Positions 7,977-60,301 of a stretch of 64,000 nt of DNA are shown here, one piece after another; position 1 is the stretch's first letter; each line of letters opens with the position of its first letter. Source of the DNA: Ktedonobacteraceae bacterium (lineage in GTDB: Bacteria > Chloroflexota > Ktedonobacteria > Ktedonobacterales > Ktedonobacteraceae); the NCBI GenBank assembly GCA_035653615.1, contig DASRBN010000033.1, positions 186,001 to 250,000 on the forward strand, in the 5' to 3' direction. A program made the position numbers and the translations under genes. The notes under the pieces are model-generated. The model saw nothing but the letters and a program-made list of their open reading frames with translations, was not told the origin of the DNA and did not search any database.

Positions 7977-9772
7977 GGGCCTTTCTCCTCCCAGTAATGA
8001 GGTGTCAAACCTCGCCGCTCCAATTCACGATGAACTTCTAACAAGCCCGTATACGTTGGCACTATAAACAACGTTTCACCGGCAGGCGCCCGGCTGATGG
8101 CCGCATCCAGCGCTTTCGCAATGCCATATTCCCTGAGTTCAATCCCCCCTTGCTGAGTAGTATGGGCGTACCCTTGCGGTCGCCCGCCACTATTTTCTCC
8201 CTCCAACCGCTCCCCGCTATTTTCCTCTTCCAGTCGCTCGCCCGCCTCAGAAGACGGCTCATTTTCTGCCGTTGAAATCGCCGGCCCCTTTACGTTTTTC
8301 GCCGACCGGATTCGTCTCAGCCTGCGGCGCTCCTTCGCATCCAGGCTTCTGGTAGCCGCGCGCAGAGGTGCAGGTGGCACGATCTTCATCGTGTCCACAT
8401 CTACTCCTGCGTACTTCAGGCGCAATGCCAGGTCCAATGCGCGCGTTCCCGCAACTGTCAGAGAATCGGTGTGTCCAACTAGGCGCTCAAAATCGACATC
8501 CCAGATCCACGAGATATCGCGCCCATCGGCAATATTATCGTTCAGAATGAACAGAACGTGACGCTGCGTACCATCGCTAAACAGCGTGCGCAGCACCTCA
8601 TTGAATCCGGTAGGATTTTTTGCCAGCAGCAAGCGTAATGTGCGTCCATCGACCTGAACGCGCTCGCCACGTCCAAAAACCGGCTTGAACTGTTCAATGC
8701 CCGTGGCTATCGGACTCCAGGAGATTTCTAATGCTTGCGCCACCGCGATTGCCGCCAGCGCATTGTACACATTATATAGCCCCGGCAGCGGAATAACGAT
8801 TTCTCCCCTGTGTTCTGGCGTCTCAACCTCAACACGCAGCCGGTCTAACCCCTCATTCGCTACTTTCACCGCTCGAACGGAAGGTTGAGGTCGCCCATAC
8901 CCGCACCCGGGACAGAAATAGTGGCCTAAATGACTATAGAAACGCACGTCGTAGCTGTAATCGGTGCCACAGCGCGAACAGGTGCGCGTATCTAAGGTCT
9001 GGTGCCTCTCCGGTACATCTCCAAGATGAAGCTCAGCATCATCGATGCCGAAATACACAACCTTGCCATCAAAATTTCCGTCTAAAACAGCGATGCCCGG
9101 ATCATCGGCATTCAATACCAACGTCGTGCTATCGGGCAGCATTCGTACAGCCTTTTGCCAGCGGGCCGCGACGCTATCGACTTCGCCGTAGCGATCCAGC
9201 TGGTCGCGAAAAAGGTTGTTGAAGACGACCACACGGGGATGTACAGACTCCACAAACTGCGGTACAACAGCCTCGTCAACCTCAAAAACCGAGATTGCCT
9301 GTCCCGAACGACGCAGTCTGCCATCCGGCTGGGCGCGAATCACCAGCGCCCCTGCCACGCCGCGCATCAAATTCGAGCCTTCCCGGTTGCGCCACACGCG
9401 CAGGCCGGCGTCGCTTAAGATTGCGGCGATGAAGCCGCTGGTCGTCGTTTTCCCATTCGTACCTGTAACCAGTATGCTTCCATAGCGCAATTGTTTCGAA
9501 AGATGCCCCACGATATCCGGGTACAGGCGCTGTGCCACCACGCCGGCAATGCTGGTGCCACCACCCAGGTGCAAACGGCGGCTCAACGCGCCCGCCGCTC
9601 TTCCACCCAGCACAGCCAGTCCTGCGCGCAATGAACTACGCCGTCGCCTGCTATAACGATGACTTTCAACAGATGTATGATCAACAGAGGACTGTTCTTC
9701 CCCTGCGCTGCTTCGCGGTCTTTTGATACGCCCGTCCCTTTTCACCAGGCGTGGCGACTTCTGTTTCCCCAT
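7973..9772 (-). CDS. murT: Lipid II isoglutaminyl synthase, Mur ligase-like subunit MurT
   Basis: A 599-residue Mur-ligase homologue. It has the ATP P-loop TGTNGKTT (residues 103-110), a four-cysteine zinc ribbon inserted in the central domain (Cys265, Cys268, Cys287, Cys290) typical of MurT, and the 'ADGRDISWIWDVDF' motif with Asp419 that faces GatD. It binds and activates the D-Glu carboxylate of lipid II. Two additions are unusual: a basic N-terminal extension (residues 1-45) and an insertion at about 475-545 in the C-terminal domain. The insertion contains an internal duplication (GERLEEENSGERLEGENSGG) and ends in residues encoded by a copy of repeat family B (8158-8188). Confidence 0.93.
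   Translation of the reverse strand: MGKQKSPRLVKRDGRIKRPRSSAGEEQSSVDHTSVESHRYSRRRRSSLRAGLAVLGGRAAGALSRRLHLGGGTSIAGVVAQRLYPDIVGHLSKQLRYGSILVTGTNGKTTTSGFIAAILSDAGLRVWRNREGSNLMRGVAGALVIRAQPDGRLRRSGQAISVFEVDEAVVPQFVESVHPRVVVFNNLFRDQLDRYGEVDSVAARWQKAVRMLPDSTTLVLNADDPGIAVLDGNFDGKVVYFGIDDAELHLGDVPERHQTLDTRTCSRCGTDYSYDVRFYSHLGHYFCPGCGYGRPQPSVRAVKVANEGLDRLRVEVETPEHRGEIVIPLPGLYNVYNALAAIAVAQALEISWSPIATGIEQFKPVFGRGERVQVDGRTLRLLLAKNPTGFNEVLRTLFSDGTQRHVLFILNDNIADGRDISWIWDVDFERLVGHTDSLTVAGTRALDLALRLKYAGVDVDTMKIVPPAPLRAATRSLDAKERRRLRRIRSAKNVKGPAISTAENEPSSEAGERLEEENSGERLEGENSGGRPQGYAHTTQQGGIELREYGIAKALDAAISRAPAGETLFIVPTYTGLLEVHRELERRGLTPHYWEEKGP
8158..8188. repeat. Repeat family B copy inside murT
   Basis: The unit GGGCGTACCCTTGCGGTCGCCCGCC closely matches the copy at 49112-49141. 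It is translated in frame in MurT as roughly GGRPQGYAHTT, in a region absent from typical MurT proteins. Confidence 0.7.
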
Positions 9773-10187
9773 CCTATTCCTCCGTCACGATTTACATTAC
9801 ATAAATCTTATAATTTGCAGCATAGCATGCAGGCGCAAGCTGGTCAAGTAGGCGCGACCCTTGAGGTCGCCCTCCACAAAAAACGCTTTGAGGTCGCCCG
9901 CCCATGCCTTTTCCGAGGAATAGATGCTGGACAACCCGTGTTATTCTTGCGTAGAACATTTTGTTGAAATAAACGTGTCATGTAGTAATATGCTGTTTCG
10001 CTGTTAAGTTTCAAGGAAGGCGAGCGAAAAATAAGTATTACATCAGGCCTGGTTCGGGTCATTGGTGAAAACAACCCCTTGTCAAGATATGCTATCCTAT
10101 GCAATGAGCATGGAATATGGATGTGTCGGCGGGGCGAATAAACCACTCGCGGTTTGTTTCGCCCACTCATTAGATCAGGTATAGGGA
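9773..10187. other. Divergent intergenic region murT / topA with repeats
   Basis: About 415 bases between the divergent murT and topA genes. It contains two partial family B repeats (GTAGGCGCGACCCTTGAGGTCGCCC at about 9848-9875 and GAGGTCGCCCGCCC at about 9890-9904). An imperfect inverted repeat, GGGCGAATAAACC / GGTTTGTTTCGCCC (10132-10164), sits just upstream of the topA start. Promoters for both genes must lie here, but I could not place them with confidence. Confidence 0.5.
10132..10164. repeat. Inverted repeat upstream of topA
   Basis: The arms GGGCGAATAAACC and GGTTTGTTTCGCCC pair with one or two mismatches around a six-base loop (ACTCGC), ending 23 bases before the topA start. It could be a regulatory hairpin in the topA leader or another dispersed repeat. 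Confidence 0.5.
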
Positions 10188-53467: not shown

Positions 53468-53545
53468 GCCGTAGGCCCCGATTGATCGGGGGCACCACCG
53501 ATTGATCGGCCTCGGTCCCTTGCCGGAATACGTTGTGAAAATTGA
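53468..53545. repeat. Repeat family C with conserved tail between sbnA and sbnB
   Basis: GCCGTAGGCCCCGATTGATC then GGGGGCACCACCGATTGATCGG, followed by the tail CCCTTGCCGGAATACGTTGTGAAAA that also follows the copies at 54617 and 59326. Confidence 0.75.
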
Positions 53546-56478: not shown

Positions 56479-57033
56479 TTGGGCATTAGCATTCTCTTTA
56501 TAGTCGTGGAACTTGTGTTGATCGTCCTGGCCCTCTTAGCCATCGCGCGCACAGGCTATTTACGCCTGAGCAGTTCGATAGGCATCGCCAGAGATGGCTT
56601 CCCACCAGGAAAATCAGCGCCATCCTGGAGCCTGCCAGACCTGGATGGACATTTAAGAGTCGTTCCGGCGCGAGATCACTGGCAATTGCTCATCTTCGCT
56701 AACCAGTCTCTAGAAGCCTTCCCTGAGCTTATCGACGGCATGCACTACCTGTCGCGTCACGAACAGGATTTAGAAGTGCTCGTTATCTCGCGCGATAGCA
56801 GGGAAGACTGCCGCAACCTGGTACAAGAGCAGCGGCTCCAGGTACCCATTGTGCCTGTCGATCCCGCGTTTTATGACCGTTATCGCGTGCGAGTCATGCC
56901 ATTTGTTTTCTTTCTTGATCCAGACGGTATCGTTCGCTGGGTCGGCCTTGTTGGAGCTGAAGAACCGTTAATTCACGCCTGGCGCATGGCCCAGGTGCCT
57001 CTTCGCTCCGGTGAAGCATCGGAGGTAAAGTAG
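56479..57033 (+). CDS. MauD-like thioredoxin-fold protein without CxxC
   Basis: 184 residues, starting at TTG (56479) nine bases after AAGGAG. One N-terminal membrane helix ('LFIVVELVLIVLALLAIART') and a thioredoxin-like extracellular domain: 'GFPPGKSAPSWSLPDLDGHL' resembles the redoxin/AhpC-TSA and MauD families. The position of the CxxC is replaced (FANQSLEAFPEL), so it should not be a disulfide oxidoreductase by itself. 'VRVMPFVFFLDPDGIVRWVG' is the conserved cis-Pro strand. It lies first in a tightly packed set with MauE, a CxxC MauD and two Cys-rich secreted proteins. Confidence 0.75.
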   Translation: MGISILFIVVELVLIVLALLAIARTGYLRLSSSIGIARDGFPPGKSAPSWSLPDLDGHLRVVPARDHWQLLIFANQSLEAFPELIDGMHYLSRHEQDLEVLVISRDSREDCRNLVQEQRLQVPIVPVDPAFYDRYRVRVMPFVFFLDPDGIVRWVGLVGAEEPLIHAWRMAQVPLRSGEASEVK

Positions 57034-57034
57034 C

Positions 57035-57583
57035 TTGCTGCAAAATACATTACAGGTACTTATTTTCCTTGCCAGGGCCTCGCTTGCGGCAGTACTCGTC
57101 GCGGCGGGTGCGGCAAAGCTCGCGGATGTCCGCGGTTTTGCCGTCACGCTCGGGGGGCTTGGCATAGCCACTCGTCTGGATTTCCTGATTCGCGGGCTTG
57201 CCTTCCTGTTTCCTTCCCTGGAACTCCTGCTGGGGATAGCCCTCGTCAGCGGCCTCTGGCCGACTCTTATTAACATCGTCGTCGTAGTGCTCATGGGTAG
57301 TTTCAGTCTTGTAGTGCTCTATGCCTTGAGGAGAAAGCTCCATGTAGCGTGTAGATGCTTCGGAACGCTCAGCGATTCGCAGTTCAGCGGCAAGGGGCTT
57401 ACTCGCAGCATATTACTCACGCTCTTAGCCATCATCGTTCTGGGGGGTGGAAGAGCATACTCTCTCCAATTCGTGGCGCCACCGGTTGCCATTCTCCTGC
57501 TTGTCAGCGGCTTCCTGCTCTTTGGTCTCACAGCAGCGCAGGCAGCCAGGTCCATAGCAGTACTTAAAGAAAGGATGATCTGA
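57035..57583 (+). CDS. mauE: MauE-like membrane protein
   Basis: 182 residues, TTG start right after the previous gene's stop (GGAGG upstream). Four or five membrane helices of the DoxX/MauE type, with the diagnostic CRCFG motif at the membrane interface (about residues 105-109) and 'LLLGIALVSGLWP'. In methylamine utilisation MauE works with MauD to form the many disulfides of the small subunit. Here it is coupled to mauD-like genes and Cys-rich proteins, which supports the same disulfide-forming role. Confidence 0.85.
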   Translation: MLQNTLQVLIFLARASLAAVLVAAGAAKLADVRGFAVTLGGLGIATRLDFLIRGLAFLFPSLELLLGIALVSGLWPTLINIVVVVLMGSFSLVVLYALRRKLHVACRCFGTLSDSQFSGKGLTRSILLTLLAIIVLGGGRAYSLQFVAPPVAILLLVSGFLLFGLTAAQAARSIAVLKERMI

Positions 57584-58182
57584 TGTATCTCACGTTCGCG
57601 GATATCGCCCTGCCATTGTGGCTTTTTGCCGGCCAATGGGTACTTCTCTTCGCTCTGGGTTTCCTGGTGTTCGTGATGTTCCGCCAGATCGCCCTCTTTG
57701 AGCGGCTCAAGGACGCAGGTTCTGAGCGAGAAGGTCTAACGGTTGGAGAGAAAGCTCCTTCGTTTGTCTATCAACCCGTGAATAGGAGAGCCAATCCACC
57801 GGCTCGCTTCGAACCGGCTGGCAGCTGGTCCCTACTCCTATTCGCGGACCCCAACTGCTCAAGTTGTCAAAGCACGCTACTCAGTCTAGAGCGCCTGGCT
57901 CCCAGGTTGACGCAATCAATGCAACTATTGGTCGCGACAACCGCGGAACCTGCTGTAATTGCAGCCGCCGAGGCATTCCGGCAGGCAACCGTCGAAATTG
58001 GCCGTATTCCTGCCGACGTCTCTATGCGGTTGTATCGCACCACTGTCACTCCATTTGGACATCTCATTGATCCGGAGGGCATAGTTCGGGCCAAAGGCGT
58101 CGTCGCGGACGAAGCGTCGCTACGGAAATTAGTGCGTCAGGGCGATCAAAAGCCCGTCAATGTAGAGTTTACCGTCTCTTAA
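57583..58182 (+). CDS. mauD: MauD-like thiol-disulfide oxidoreductase
   Basis: 199 residues. An N-terminal membrane helix ('WLFAGQWVLLFALGFLVFVM', about 13-32), then a thioredoxin-fold domain with the redox motif C-S-S-C in 'FADPNCSSCQSTLLSLE' (about 91-107) and the cis-Pro strand 'TTVTPFGHLIDPEGIVRAKG'. It is translated from an ATG overlapping the mauE stop (TGATG). MauD proteins form or shuffle disulfides in the periplasm or outer space. The substrates are most likely the two Cys-rich proteins that follow. Confidence 0.88.
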   Translation: MYLTFADIALPLWLFAGQWVLLFALGFLVFVMFRQIALFERLKDAGSEREGLTVGEKAPSFVYQPVNRRANPPARFEPAGSWSLLLFADPNCSSCQSTLLSLERLAPRLTQSMQLLVATTAEPAVIAAAEAFRQATVEIGRIPADVSMRLYRTTVTPFGHLIDPEGIVRAKGVVADEASLRKLVRQGDQKPVNVEFTVS

Positions 58183-58198
58183 AAGGGGGAAATACACC

Positions 58199-58636
58199 AT
58201 GCTTGAGGAATTTGATAAGCAGATCAGTATCCTATCCGAATCATTTGCCCGCAAGTTCAACCGGCGCAAAGTGATCGGCACTACCGTCAAAGGTGTTTTT
58301 GCGACAGTCGCCGCCGCCTCTATTGGTCAACTGACCAATCTGGGGCAGGCGTTTGCTCAAACCTGCACGTGCGACGAAGGCTGGACGCGAGGGAAACCAT
58401 GCAACTACTATGGCTTTAATTGTCCCAATAATGGTTGCCCAGGTGCCTGCTCCGTCTGTTATAAGCCCAGTTGCGGCGGCTGGTGCGATTATTCCAATGG
58501 ACACTGGGTCTCCTGTAGTGGCCTGGGTCCCAGCCATAAAGGCTACCGCCTGTGCTGGGACTGTTGGAGATGCGGCAACAAGGGCGGTTACTGCCAGCCA
58601 AAATGTTCCTGCCTCAGCAATTGCATCGGCTGCTGA
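58199..58636 (+). CDS. Disulfide-rich secreted MauA-like protein, copy 1
   Basis: 145 residues. A leader with a twin-arginine-like motif (FNRRKVIG, about 20-27) and an Ala-rich segment ends near 'GQAFAQ', giving a mature part of about 90 residues with some 18 cysteines. The core 'GHWVSCSGLGPSHKGYRLCW' followed by D-C-W and 'CSCL' resembles the methylamine dehydrogenase light chain around Trp57 and the disulfide core. The C-terminal part with the second TTQ tryptophan (Trp108) is missing, and there is no heavy-chain gene. It is probably a secreted structural or ligand-binding protein matured by MauD/MauE. Confidence 0.8.
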   Translation: MLEEFDKQISILSESFARKFNRRKVIGTTVKGVFATVAAASIGQLTNLGQAFAQTCTCDEGWTRGKPCNYYGFNCPNNGCPGACSVCYKPSCGGWCDYSNGHWVSCSGLGPSHKGYRLCWDCWRCGNKGGYCQPKCSCLSNCIGC

Positions 58637-58858
58637 TCCTTGCGTGCAAAGGAATCGCGGGCTTGCGTCCTCGCGCCCACGTAAGGTCGCACCCTGGTGG
58701 TTGCACGTGTCCGTGCAGGGATCAAACAGGAACTCCGCAAATTCCTCTGTTCCGGTGTATCCTCTCAGAGGATGGCGGGGCAGGGCCATGTGCCCGCCCT
58801 GCCAACTGGTTGTAGGGACAGCGCCGTGTGCCTGTCCTTCTAGAAAAGAGAGTTCAGC
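58637..58858. repeat. Repeats B and A between the two Cys-rich genes
   Basis: A diverged family B unit (GTAAGGTCGCACCCTGGTGG at 58681-58700) and a family A unit (TGTAGGGACAGCGCCGTGTG then CCTGTCC at 58811-58837) fill the 222-base gap. Confidence 0.65.
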
Positions 58859-59287
58859 ATGTTCGAGGAATTTGATAAACAGGTCAGTATCTTGTCCGAA
58901 TCATTCGCGCGCAAATTCAACCGGCGCAAGGTAATGAGCGGTACCATCAAAGGAGTATTCGCTACCATTGCCGCCGCCTCTATTGGTCAGCTAACCAACC
59001 TGGGGCAGGCCTTCGCCCAGTCTTGTACCTGTGACGAAGGCTGGACGCAGGGTCATCCATGTAACTACTGGGGGTATCCTTGTCCCAGCAATGGCTGTCC
59101 ATCCGGCATGAAAGTCTGTTACAAGCCCAGTTGCGGCGGCTGGTGCGACTATTCCAATGGGCACTGGGTCTCTTGTAGTGGCCTGGGTCCCAGCCATAAA
59201 GGCTACCGCCTGTGCTGGGATTGTACCAACAGGAACAATCCCTGCCATCCCAAATGCTCCTGCCTGAGCACCTGTCTCGGTTGCTAG
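58859..59287 (+). CDS. Disulfide-rich secreted MauA-like protein, copy 2
   Basis: 142 residues, closely similar to copy 1 along the whole length. The leader is nearly the same (SILSESFARKFNRRKVMSGT...), as is the core 'CGGWCDYSNGHWVSCSGLGP'. Differences are concentrated in the segment 'CNYWGYPCPSNGCPSGMKVC' and in the C-terminal region after 'LCWDC', where copy 1 has an extra Trp/Cys pair. The recent duplication followed by focused divergence suggests two related functions, for example different partners. No cofactor-forming MauG gene is nearby. Confidence 0.8.
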   Translation: MFEEFDKQVSILSESFARKFNRRKVMSGTIKGVFATIAAASIGQLTNLGQAFAQSCTCDEGWTQGHPCNYWGYPCPSNGCPSGMKVCYKPSCGGWCDYSNGHWVSCSGLGPSHKGYRLCWDCTNRNNPCHPKCSCLSTCLGC

Positions 59288-59325
59288 TCCTTGCGGGGGC
59301 CAGTCAATCGGCTCCACGGCTCTGC

Positions 59326-59452
59326 CGTAGGGGCCGATTGATCGCGCCCACCGCCGATTGATCGGCCCGCGTCCCTTGCCAGACAATGTTGTGAAAAACC
59401 ATGATCGGCCCGCGTCCCTTGCCGGAGCATTTTGTTAAAATTTATTACCGGT
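59326..59452. repeat. Repeat family C with two tails
   Basis: CCGTAGGGGCCGATTGATCG then CCGCCGATTGATCGGCC, followed by two tail copies GCGTCCCTTGCC(A/G)GA..TTGT(G/T)AAAA separated by CATGATCGGCCC. The tail duplication suggests the element is composite. Confidence 0.75.
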
Positions 59453-59512
59453 CCTGTGCCCATAGTATGTTCTCGAAACCCATCACAGAACCTTTGAGGA
59501 GCGCAAACAACC

Positions 59513-59692
59513 ATGATCAAAGTAGAGCGCCTGTCACAGCCTCTCCGCCTGTCCCTCACCGGCAGCATGCTCATCTGTGGCTTCATCGCGGCGGCATTGC
59601 TCCTTCACCAGGGCAACTTCGCCTCTGCCAGCGCCGTCTTCGCCATCGGCCTCGCTGCCCTCGTCGGCGCTGGCAAACTCGCTTCCCCTTGA
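59513..59692 (+). CDS. Very small membrane protein
   Basis: 59 residues from the ATG at 59513 (GAGGAG ten bases upstream) to TGA at 59690. It has a basic N terminus (MIKVERLSQPLRLSLTGS) and two hydrophobic segments (about 17-31 and 38-54, rich in Ala, Leu and Gly). There is no cysteine beyond the one in the first helix. It lies between the Cys-rich protein genes and another membrane protein gene on the same strand, and could be a small accessory subunit of the same export or maturation system. Confidence 0.6.
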   Translation: MIKVERLSQPLRLSLTGSMLICGFIAAALLLHQGNFASASAVFAIGLAALVGAGKLASP

Positions 59693-59749
59693 GGCTTCAA
59701 CGCGGCCACCACTGCCGTGTTATCCTCCGGGCGAGGATATGGACTCAGA

Positions 59750-60301
59750 ATGTTACTCTATATAGCAGCTTACGCCGTCCCCGCCGCCATCGCCTGGGGC
59801 ATATTTGCTCTCGTCTTCAGACTATTGGCCGCTATTCCCCTCTTGCTGCCCCTTTTAGCCCTCGCCTACGCTCTATGGTTCGGCCTGAACGAGCTCCTGG
59901 AATTCAGCCCCATACGACTAAGCCTGGCGTGGCAGGTGCCATCATCCTGGGTCAAGCATCGTCCCGCGCCCGTTCAGGCGCTCATCTGGGGTACCTCGCT
60001 TGGCCCTGGCCTGATCACACGCAACCCCTACGCCGGCATCTGGCTGCTCCCATTCTTGATCGTCCTGGGCCGCGACCCCGTCATGACCCTTATCACCGGT
60101 CTCCTGGTAGGAGCCGTACATGGTGGAGCGCGTGCCATCGGTGTCCTGCGCAATCGCAGCTGTATGCGCGACGACATCGACGCCTACCTCAAGATCATGG
60201 GTCAGCAGCAGCGCTGGCAGTACCTCGATGGTCTTGCCCTCCTGCTCGCCGCCGGTGCCCTCGGCGCCTATGCCATCTTTTTGCTGGGCGGCCATCTCTA
60301 G
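59750..60301 (+). CDS. Polytopic membrane protein of unknown function
   Basis: 183 residues from the ATG at 59750 (a GTG at 59717 would add 11 residues). About five membrane helices (for example 'LLYIAAYAVPAAIAWGIFAL' and 'IPLLLPLLALAYALWFGLNE'). The central loop 'WGTSLGPGLITRNPYAGIWL' is Gly/Pro-rich, loosely like CcdA/DsbD-type transporters but with no cysteine pair in the helices, so I do not assign it. It ends the plus-strand run that started with mauD/mauE, and it probably belongs to it because the spacing is short (57 bases after the previous stop). Confidence 0.6.
   Translation: MLLYIAAYAVPAAIAWGIFALVFRLLAAIPLLLPLLALAYALWFGLNELLEFSPIRLSLAWQVPSSWVKHRPAPVQALIWGTSLGPGLITRNPYAGIWLLPFLIVLGRDPVMTLITGLLVGAVHGGARAIGVLRNRSCMRDDIDAYLKIMGQQQRWQYLDGLALLLAAGALGAYAIFLLGGHL

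What the first reader, a model, noticed from the sequence alone, without database searches (positions are those of the whole stretch)
56479..60301. MauD/MauE system serving two MauA-like proteins without the dehydrogenase
Two paralogous secreted proteins carry about 16-18 cysteines each and a segment like the methylamine dehydrogenase light chain around Trp57, but lack the region of Trp108. No mauB, mauG or other mau genes are present. The maturation genes are kept in a tight operon. This looks like a repurposed, TTQ-free MauA fold with its own disulfide factory, plus a CxxC-less MauD-like protein and two extra membrane proteins of unknown role.
Basis: partly seen in the sequence, partly recalled or inferred. 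Interest (0 to 1): 0.75.

Follow-up and report, generated by a model that had tools for sequence, protein, structure and literature searches.

The report
MauE/MauD module for cysteine-rich secreted proteins
A bacterium of the phylum Chloroflexota carries two small exported proteins packed with cysteines in the gene slot that the light chain of methylamine dehydrogenase fills elsewhere, together with the same disulfide-handling helper genes, which suggests that these helpers serve a large, mostly unstudied class of secreted cysteine-rich proteins.

Summary
The genes are real: a MauD-like protein without CxxC (56479), MauE (57035), a MauD-like protein with CSSC (57583), two paralogous cysteine-rich proteins with leaders (58199, 58859; 18 and 16 Cys) and a membrane protein (59717/59750). 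The genome has no detectable MauB or MauG family member. The claimed Trp57 segment is not supported: the mature proteins are no more like MauA than shuffled sequences (z about -1 to 2), while genuine distant MauAs of the same phylum give z 10-16. Gene order partly rescues the idea. Homologues of the membrane protein lie in MauE-MauD-cargo-membrane protein modules; in L185 the cargo is a true MauA with both TTQ tryptophans. In L213 the membrane protein is fused to MauE and the cargo is a clear homologue of the window pair (z 10). Of 44 MauE genes examined, 20 have a same-strand cysteine-rich small ORF within 1.7 kb, against 0 of 75 controls. Best explanation: a dedicated export and oxidative-folding module for a TTQ-free cysteine-rich cargo of unknown final function. 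MauE/MauD beside cysteine-rich precursors was noted before (decRiPPter); the membrane-protein link, the MauA-slot equivalence and this cargo family appear new. Structure prediction was uninformative.

The parts
56479..57033 (+). MauD-like membrane-anchored thioredoxin-fold protein without CxxC
   Evidence: PF00578 E 1.9e-6; TIGR02661 E 1.3e-7, below cut-off; hit by a MauD profile built without it, E 1e-18, no CxxC
57035..57583 (+). MauE (DoxX-like membrane protein with a CxC pair)
   Evidence: PF07291 E 7.1e-20, over cut-off; CxC present in 53 of 53 MauE domains compared
57583..58182 (+). MauD-like protein with CSSC
   Evidence: TIGR02661 E 5.6e-10, below cut-off; CSSC at the MauD active-site position
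58199..58636 (+). Cysteine-rich cargo 1: 145 aa, leader of about 54 aa with RR motif, 18 Cys in the mature part
   Evidence: homologous to the cargo of L213, z 10
58859..59287 (+). Cysteine-rich cargo 2: 142 aa, 16 Cys, paralogue of cargo 1
   Evidence: 82% identity; dN/dS about 0.17
59513..59692 (+). Possible 59-aa hydrophobic ORF; membership of the module uncertain
   Evidence: read from the sequence; no homologue was sought
59717..60301 (+). Membrane protein of the MP family (ATG at 59750 also possible as start)
   Evidence: profile links to MP proteins beside MauE/MauD/MauA in other genomes; fused to MauE in L213

Best explanation
The genes at 56479-60301 are a dedicated export and oxidative-folding module for two cysteine-rich proteins. 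The cargo is made with a long leader carrying a twin-arginine-type motif and crosses the membrane. MauD (CSSC, thioredoxin fold, membrane-anchored) exchanges disulfides with it; MauE (DoxX-like, CxC pair) is the membrane redox partner that recharges MauD; the third membrane protein (MP), fused to MauE in a relative, assists MauE. The CxxC-less MauD-like protein probably binds cargo without redox activity. No TTQ is formed, because the second tryptophan, MauB and MauG are missing. Shown here: gene content and order, conserved CxC and CxxC, co-occurrence with cysteine-rich ORFs, the MP-MauE fusion, purifying selection on the cargos, cargo homologues in the same kind of module, and a true MauA in the cargo slot of a sister module. 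Inferred: the export route, disulfide formation, direction of electron flow, and the roles of MP and the CxxC-less protein. The final job of the cargo is not known; a secreted disulfide-rich effector or antimicrobial protein is my first guess.
For: Order MauE-MauD-cargo-MP recurs in L183, L214, L215, L217 and L218 (the MauD of L217 and the cargos of L214 and L218 identified by eye), with MauA as the cargo in L185; Thermomicrobium loci have MauA, MauE, MauD and MP together. L213 has MP and MauE in one ORF followed by MauD and a cargo that is homologous to the window cargo: z 10, and 7.3 with Cys positions held fixed. Cysteine-rich same-strand ORF within 1.7 kb of MauE: 20 of 44 against 0 of 75 control genes, Fisher p 7e-11. 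Nine of ten full-length MauE copies of this genome have such a neighbour. CxC in 53 of 53 MauE; CxxC in nearly all MauD-like proteins. dN/dS 0.17 between the paralogues, 0.06 in the leader. No MauB or MauG.
Against: No experiment. The twin-arginine motif of the window cargos (NRRKVIG) is not hit by any Tat model at E<=1, although several relatives' cargos are. In lasso-peptide clusters the DoxX/thioredoxin pair was dispensable for disulfides (PMC9266682). MP stands without MauE or cargo in L182 and L216, and some weaker MP hits were not examined. About half of the MauE loci show no such ORF by the filter used. The MauE tree does not place the window MauE.
Confidence: 0.6

Rival explanations
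1. The cargos are true but highly diverged MauA descendants: MauA-fold proteins that lost the second tryptophan and the dehydrogenase partner. This can be true together with the best explanation.
For: Cargo and MauA occupy the same slot between MauD and MP (L185 against L183 and the window); leaders score weakly with a MauA profile.
Against: Mature-domain similarity to MauA is at shuffle level, while real distant MauAs give z 10-16; PF02975 is not hit; the cargo homologues from L213, L183 and L184 do not bridge to MauA either.
Confidence: 0.3
2. The cargo is a precursor of an antimicrobial or other bioactive peptide (RiPP-like), and MauE/MauD are its tailoring enzymes.
For: decRiPPter listed mauE/mauD clusters with precursors of at least 8 Cys as candidate RiPP families (PMC7794033); some other MauE loci pair a short cysteine-rich peptide with a signal-peptidase-like gene (read by eye); tandem paralogues; an NRPS-containing region lies upstream.
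Against: No peptidase, transporter or immunity gene in this module; the mature part is 88-91 aa, large for such peptides; no bacteriocin model is hit.
Confidence: 0.35
3. MauE, MauD and MP act mainly in export or release of the cargo, and disulfides form spontaneously or by a general pathway.
For: In the sviceucin cluster, deleting sviF left the disulfides intact but confined the peptide to the mycelium (PMC9266682).
Against: CxC in all MauE and CxxC in nearly all MauD-like proteins compared argue for redox work; Paracoccus MauE and MauD are reported as essential in methylamine metabolism (1997 paper cited in PMC7794033; not read here).
Confidence: 0.15
4. The neighbourhood is accidental and MauE/MauD serve general redox housekeeping.
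For: MauE-type proteins are common in these genomes.
Against: Strong co-occurrence against controls, repeated gene order and the MP-MauE fusion.
Confidence: 0.04

Closest known systems
mau gene cluster of Paracoccus denitrificans (mauF-B-E-D-A)
   Same: Order mauE-mauD-mauA with a cysteine-rich exported product directly after mauD; MauE and MauD homologues
   Different: No mauB, mauG, amicyanin or other mau genes near the window; cargo mature domain not detectably MauA; an MP membrane protein is added, and a CxxC-less MauD-like protein
decRiPPter candidate families with mauE, one with mauD, in Streptomyces (PMC7794033)
   Same: mauE (and mauD) next to a precursor with at least 8 Cys, without the rest of the mau cluster
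   Different: Their precursors were not available for comparison; here a longer cargo, the MP protein, and modules in which the cargo is MauA itself
MauA-like modules of Thermomicrobium and of L185
   Same: MauE, MauD and the MP membrane protein beside the cargo
   Different: Their cargo is a true MauA with both TTQ tryptophans; in Thermomicrobium further large ORFs lie between the copies and MauE carries a long extra N-terminal domain
DoxX plus thioredoxin pairs of disulfide lasso peptides (SviE/SviF, HumE/HumF, MslE/MslF)
   Same: DoxX-like membrane protein plus a CxxC thioredoxin-like protein next to an exported disulfide peptide
   Different: Short lasso peptides with ABC export; here an 88-91 aa mature protein with 16-18 Cys and a twin-arginine-type leader

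Membership tests
MauA, methylamine dehydrogenase light chain (PF02975) | Profile match of the mature domain | tested here: not met
   No PF02975 hit for the window proteins or in the own genome; mature-domain scores at shuffle level
MauA, methylamine dehydrogenase light chain (PF02975) | Both TTQ tryptophans (Trp57 and Trp108) | tested here: not met
   The protein ends without the Trp108 region; Trp103 cannot be aligned with Trp57 above chance
MauA, methylamine dehydrogenase light chain (PF02975) | MADH fold | tested here: inconclusive
   AlphaFold models with pLDDT 45.8 and 40.7 are uninformative
Methylamine dehydrogenase system | mauB and mauG present in the genome | tested here: not met
   PF06433 only E 0.33, below cut-off; PF03150 none at E<=1
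MauE (PF07291) | Profile match over the cut-off and CxC pair | tested here: met
   E 7.1e-20, 72 bits against a cut-off of 27; CxC
MauD (TIGR02661 equivalog) | Score over the equivalog cut-off | tested here: not met
   31 and 39 bits against a cut-off of 188.6: MauD-like, not MauD equivalogs
MauD-like thioredoxin-fold proteins | CxxC active site | tested here: met
   Met by 57583 (CSSC) only; 56479 has none
Twin-arginine (Tat) substrate | Match to a Tat signal model | tested here: inconclusive
   RR motif and hydrophobic stretch are present, but no Tat model hit at E<=1 for the window cargos; three of ten cargos from other MauE loci exceed the TIGR01409 cut-off
decRiPPter-type MauE-linked RiPP candidate | mauE plus a precursor with at least 8 Cys, without the other mau genes | tested here: met
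decRiPPter-type MauE-linked RiPP candidate | Product is a processed, modified peptide | not testable with these tools
   Needs mass spectrometry of the product

The most novel reading that the evidence does not exclude
MauA is only one specialised cargo of a widespread MauE-MauD-MP export-folding system. Its other cargos form a large hidden class of exported cysteine-rich mini-proteins, of which the window pair is a TTQ-free member sitting in the MauA slot, and the MP family is a new partner of MauE.
Probability: 0.5. Interest if true: 0.7.

Novelty: new variant of a known kind. Interest (0 to 1): 0.52.

Why it matters
MauE and MauD are known almost only from methylamine dehydrogenase, where what exactly they do is still unclear. 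Finding them, with a further membrane protein that can be fused to MauE, beside many different cysteine-rich exported proteins separates their role from TTQ. This operon, with two cargos and no enzyme, would let one test directly what MauE and MauD do to a cysteine-rich substrate. It also points to a reservoir of disulfide-rich secreted mini-proteins in Chloroflexota.

Tried and rejected
PDB, Pfam and NCBIfam sequence searches with the cargo: nothing meaningful. Cargo search in 100 relatives, in the class and in 400 phylum genomes: outside the own genome only weak hits, and the six inspected lay in unrelated frames. Plasmids, two genome-contig scans and one viral scan: no relative. Homologous cargos appeared only through the membrane protein. 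PF02975 in the class: chance hits; in the phylum it found true MauA-like proteins. The MAFFT alignment with an 'invariant' Trp was first taken as support and set aside after the shuffle tests. The MauE tree is too divergent to place the window MauE. Pfam and NCBIfam scans of cargos from other MauE loci gave Tat signals only. Literature searches on MauE with halocin C8 or Thermomicrobium gave nothing relevant.

Full report
Observation. The window lies in a 6.6-Mb genome (G000:C33:186001-250000) of the phylum that also holds Thermomicrobium-type genomes, hence Chloroflexota in the GTDB sense; its family includes genomes of up to 13.7 Mb, which fits Ktedonobacteria (inference). On the + strand, nearly without gaps, lie a MauD-like protein (56479-57033), MauE (57035-57583), a second MauD-like protein (57583-58182) and a cysteine-rich protein (58199-58636). 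A second cysteine-rich protein follows after 220 bases (58859-59287), then a membrane protein (59717-60301, with an in-frame ATG at 59750). MauE is over the Pfam cut-off; both MauD-like proteins are well below the MauD equivalog cut-off. The first MauD-like protein lacks CxxC, which is rare among about 50 MauD-like hits. The cysteine-rich pair have 18 and 16 Cys, all in the mature part, and evolve under purifying selection: dN/dS about 0.17 overall, 0.06 in the leader, and no amino-acid change in residues 86-121. No MauB or MauG family member is found in the genome.

Is it MauA? Not by sequence. PF02975 does not hit the window proteins. I collected true MauAs from plasmids, which led to Thermomicrobium roseum, and from the phylum, and ran profile and shuffle tests. 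Distant but true MauAs (Thermomicrobium, L185) score z 10-16 against Paracoccus MauA; the window proteins score between about -1.3 and 1.9 against MauA sequences, like unrelated cysteine-rich controls. The tidy MAFFT alignment in which one Trp is invariant is therefore not evidence. The only detectable likeness is in the leader, and leaders of unrelated cysteine-rich proteins score equally well.

What the context says. The membrane protein at 59717 (called MP here) has homologues: profile searches from Thermomicrobium MP to the window (E 0.005), and from the Ktedonobacterial set to L185 (1.9e-14) and L183 (1e-11), tie them into one family. Around the homologues the same genes return: MauE-MauD-cargo-MP in L183, L214, L215, L217 and L218; cargo-MP at a contig start in L184; an MP-MauE fusion followed by MauD and cargo in L213; MauE-MauD-MauA-MP in L185, whose MauA keeps both TTQ tryptophans; and MauA, MauE with a long extra N-terminal domain, MauD and MP in Thermomicrobium. 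The MauD of L217 and the cargos of L214 and L218 were identified by eye. In L182 and L216 MP stands without MauE or cargo, and some weaker MP hits were not examined. The L213 cargo is a clear homologue of the window pair (z 10; 7.3 with Cys positions held fixed); L183 and, more weakly, L184 link on through L213. So the window cargos belong to a real family that sits where MauA sits in a sister module.

A wider pattern. This genome holds ten full-length MauE copies over the cut-off, and nine have a small cysteine-rich ORF nearby. Over 44 MauE loci of this class and a few other families of the phylum, 20 have a same-strand, non-overlapped cysteine-rich small ORF within 1.7 kb, against 0 of 75 control genes, which are ORFs of at least 150 aa in the same set of loci away from MauE (Fisher p 7e-11). 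With overlapped ORFs allowed the counts are 22 of 44 and 3 of 75. A few visible cargos miss the filter (L129, L131). Several MauE clades carry their own kind of cargo (read off by eye).

Mechanism (best guess). The cargo is exported; it exchanges disulfides with MauD; MauE, through its CxC, is the membrane redox partner; MP helps MauE; the CxxC-less MauD-like protein may hold the cargo. Only the genes, motifs, fusion, co-occurrence and selection are shown. A caution: in lasso-peptide clusters the DoxX/thioredoxin pair was dispensable for disulfides, and one partner affected release of the peptide (PMC9266682).

Known or new? MauE, once with MauD, beside precursors with at least 8 Cys was listed among candidate RiPP families in Streptomyces (PMC7794033). 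I found no paper linking MauE to such a membrane protein or describing these Chloroflexota modules (only open-licence papers are held). I therefore file it as a new variant of a known but untested kind. Structure prediction was uninformative, so a diverged MauA fold remains possible (about 0.3).

Noticed in passing
L146 (Thermomicrobium roseum plasmid NC_011961.1), L155, L187, L188, L190: Two or more MauA-like copies per cluster, those read keeping both TTQ tryptophans, interleaved with large unannotated ORFs (one with a weak PQQ_2 propeller hit), MauE with a long extra N-terminal domain, MauD and MP: possibly a divergent methylamine-dehydrogenase-like array outside Proteobacteria.
   Followed up: partly
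G000: L093, L094, L095, L097, L098, L099, L100: The same genome has many other MauE loci with different cysteine-rich small ORFs; some MauE are in one ORF with a thioredoxin-like part (L093, L094), and a class without RR leader has a signal-peptidase-like gene nearby (L095, L097).
   Followed up: partly
L099:7000-7572 and 9323-9889; L185:14306-14602: A protein with a YLGRVI(V/I)E(L/V)W motif follows cysteine-rich cargos in two distant genomes; possibly another partner of such cargos.
   Followed up: no
window 31310-56407: Two NRPS proteins (A-T and C-A-T), FemAB-like proteins, SbnA/SbnB-like genes (2,3-diaminopropionate), a sulfotransferase and an APS kinase lie upstream: probably a natural-product cluster.
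   Followed up: partly
window 53508-53524, 59364-59380, 59407-59423: Dispersed short repeat GGCCNNNGTCCCTTGCC, three exact copies, two of them between the second cargo and the membrane protein.
   Followed up: partly
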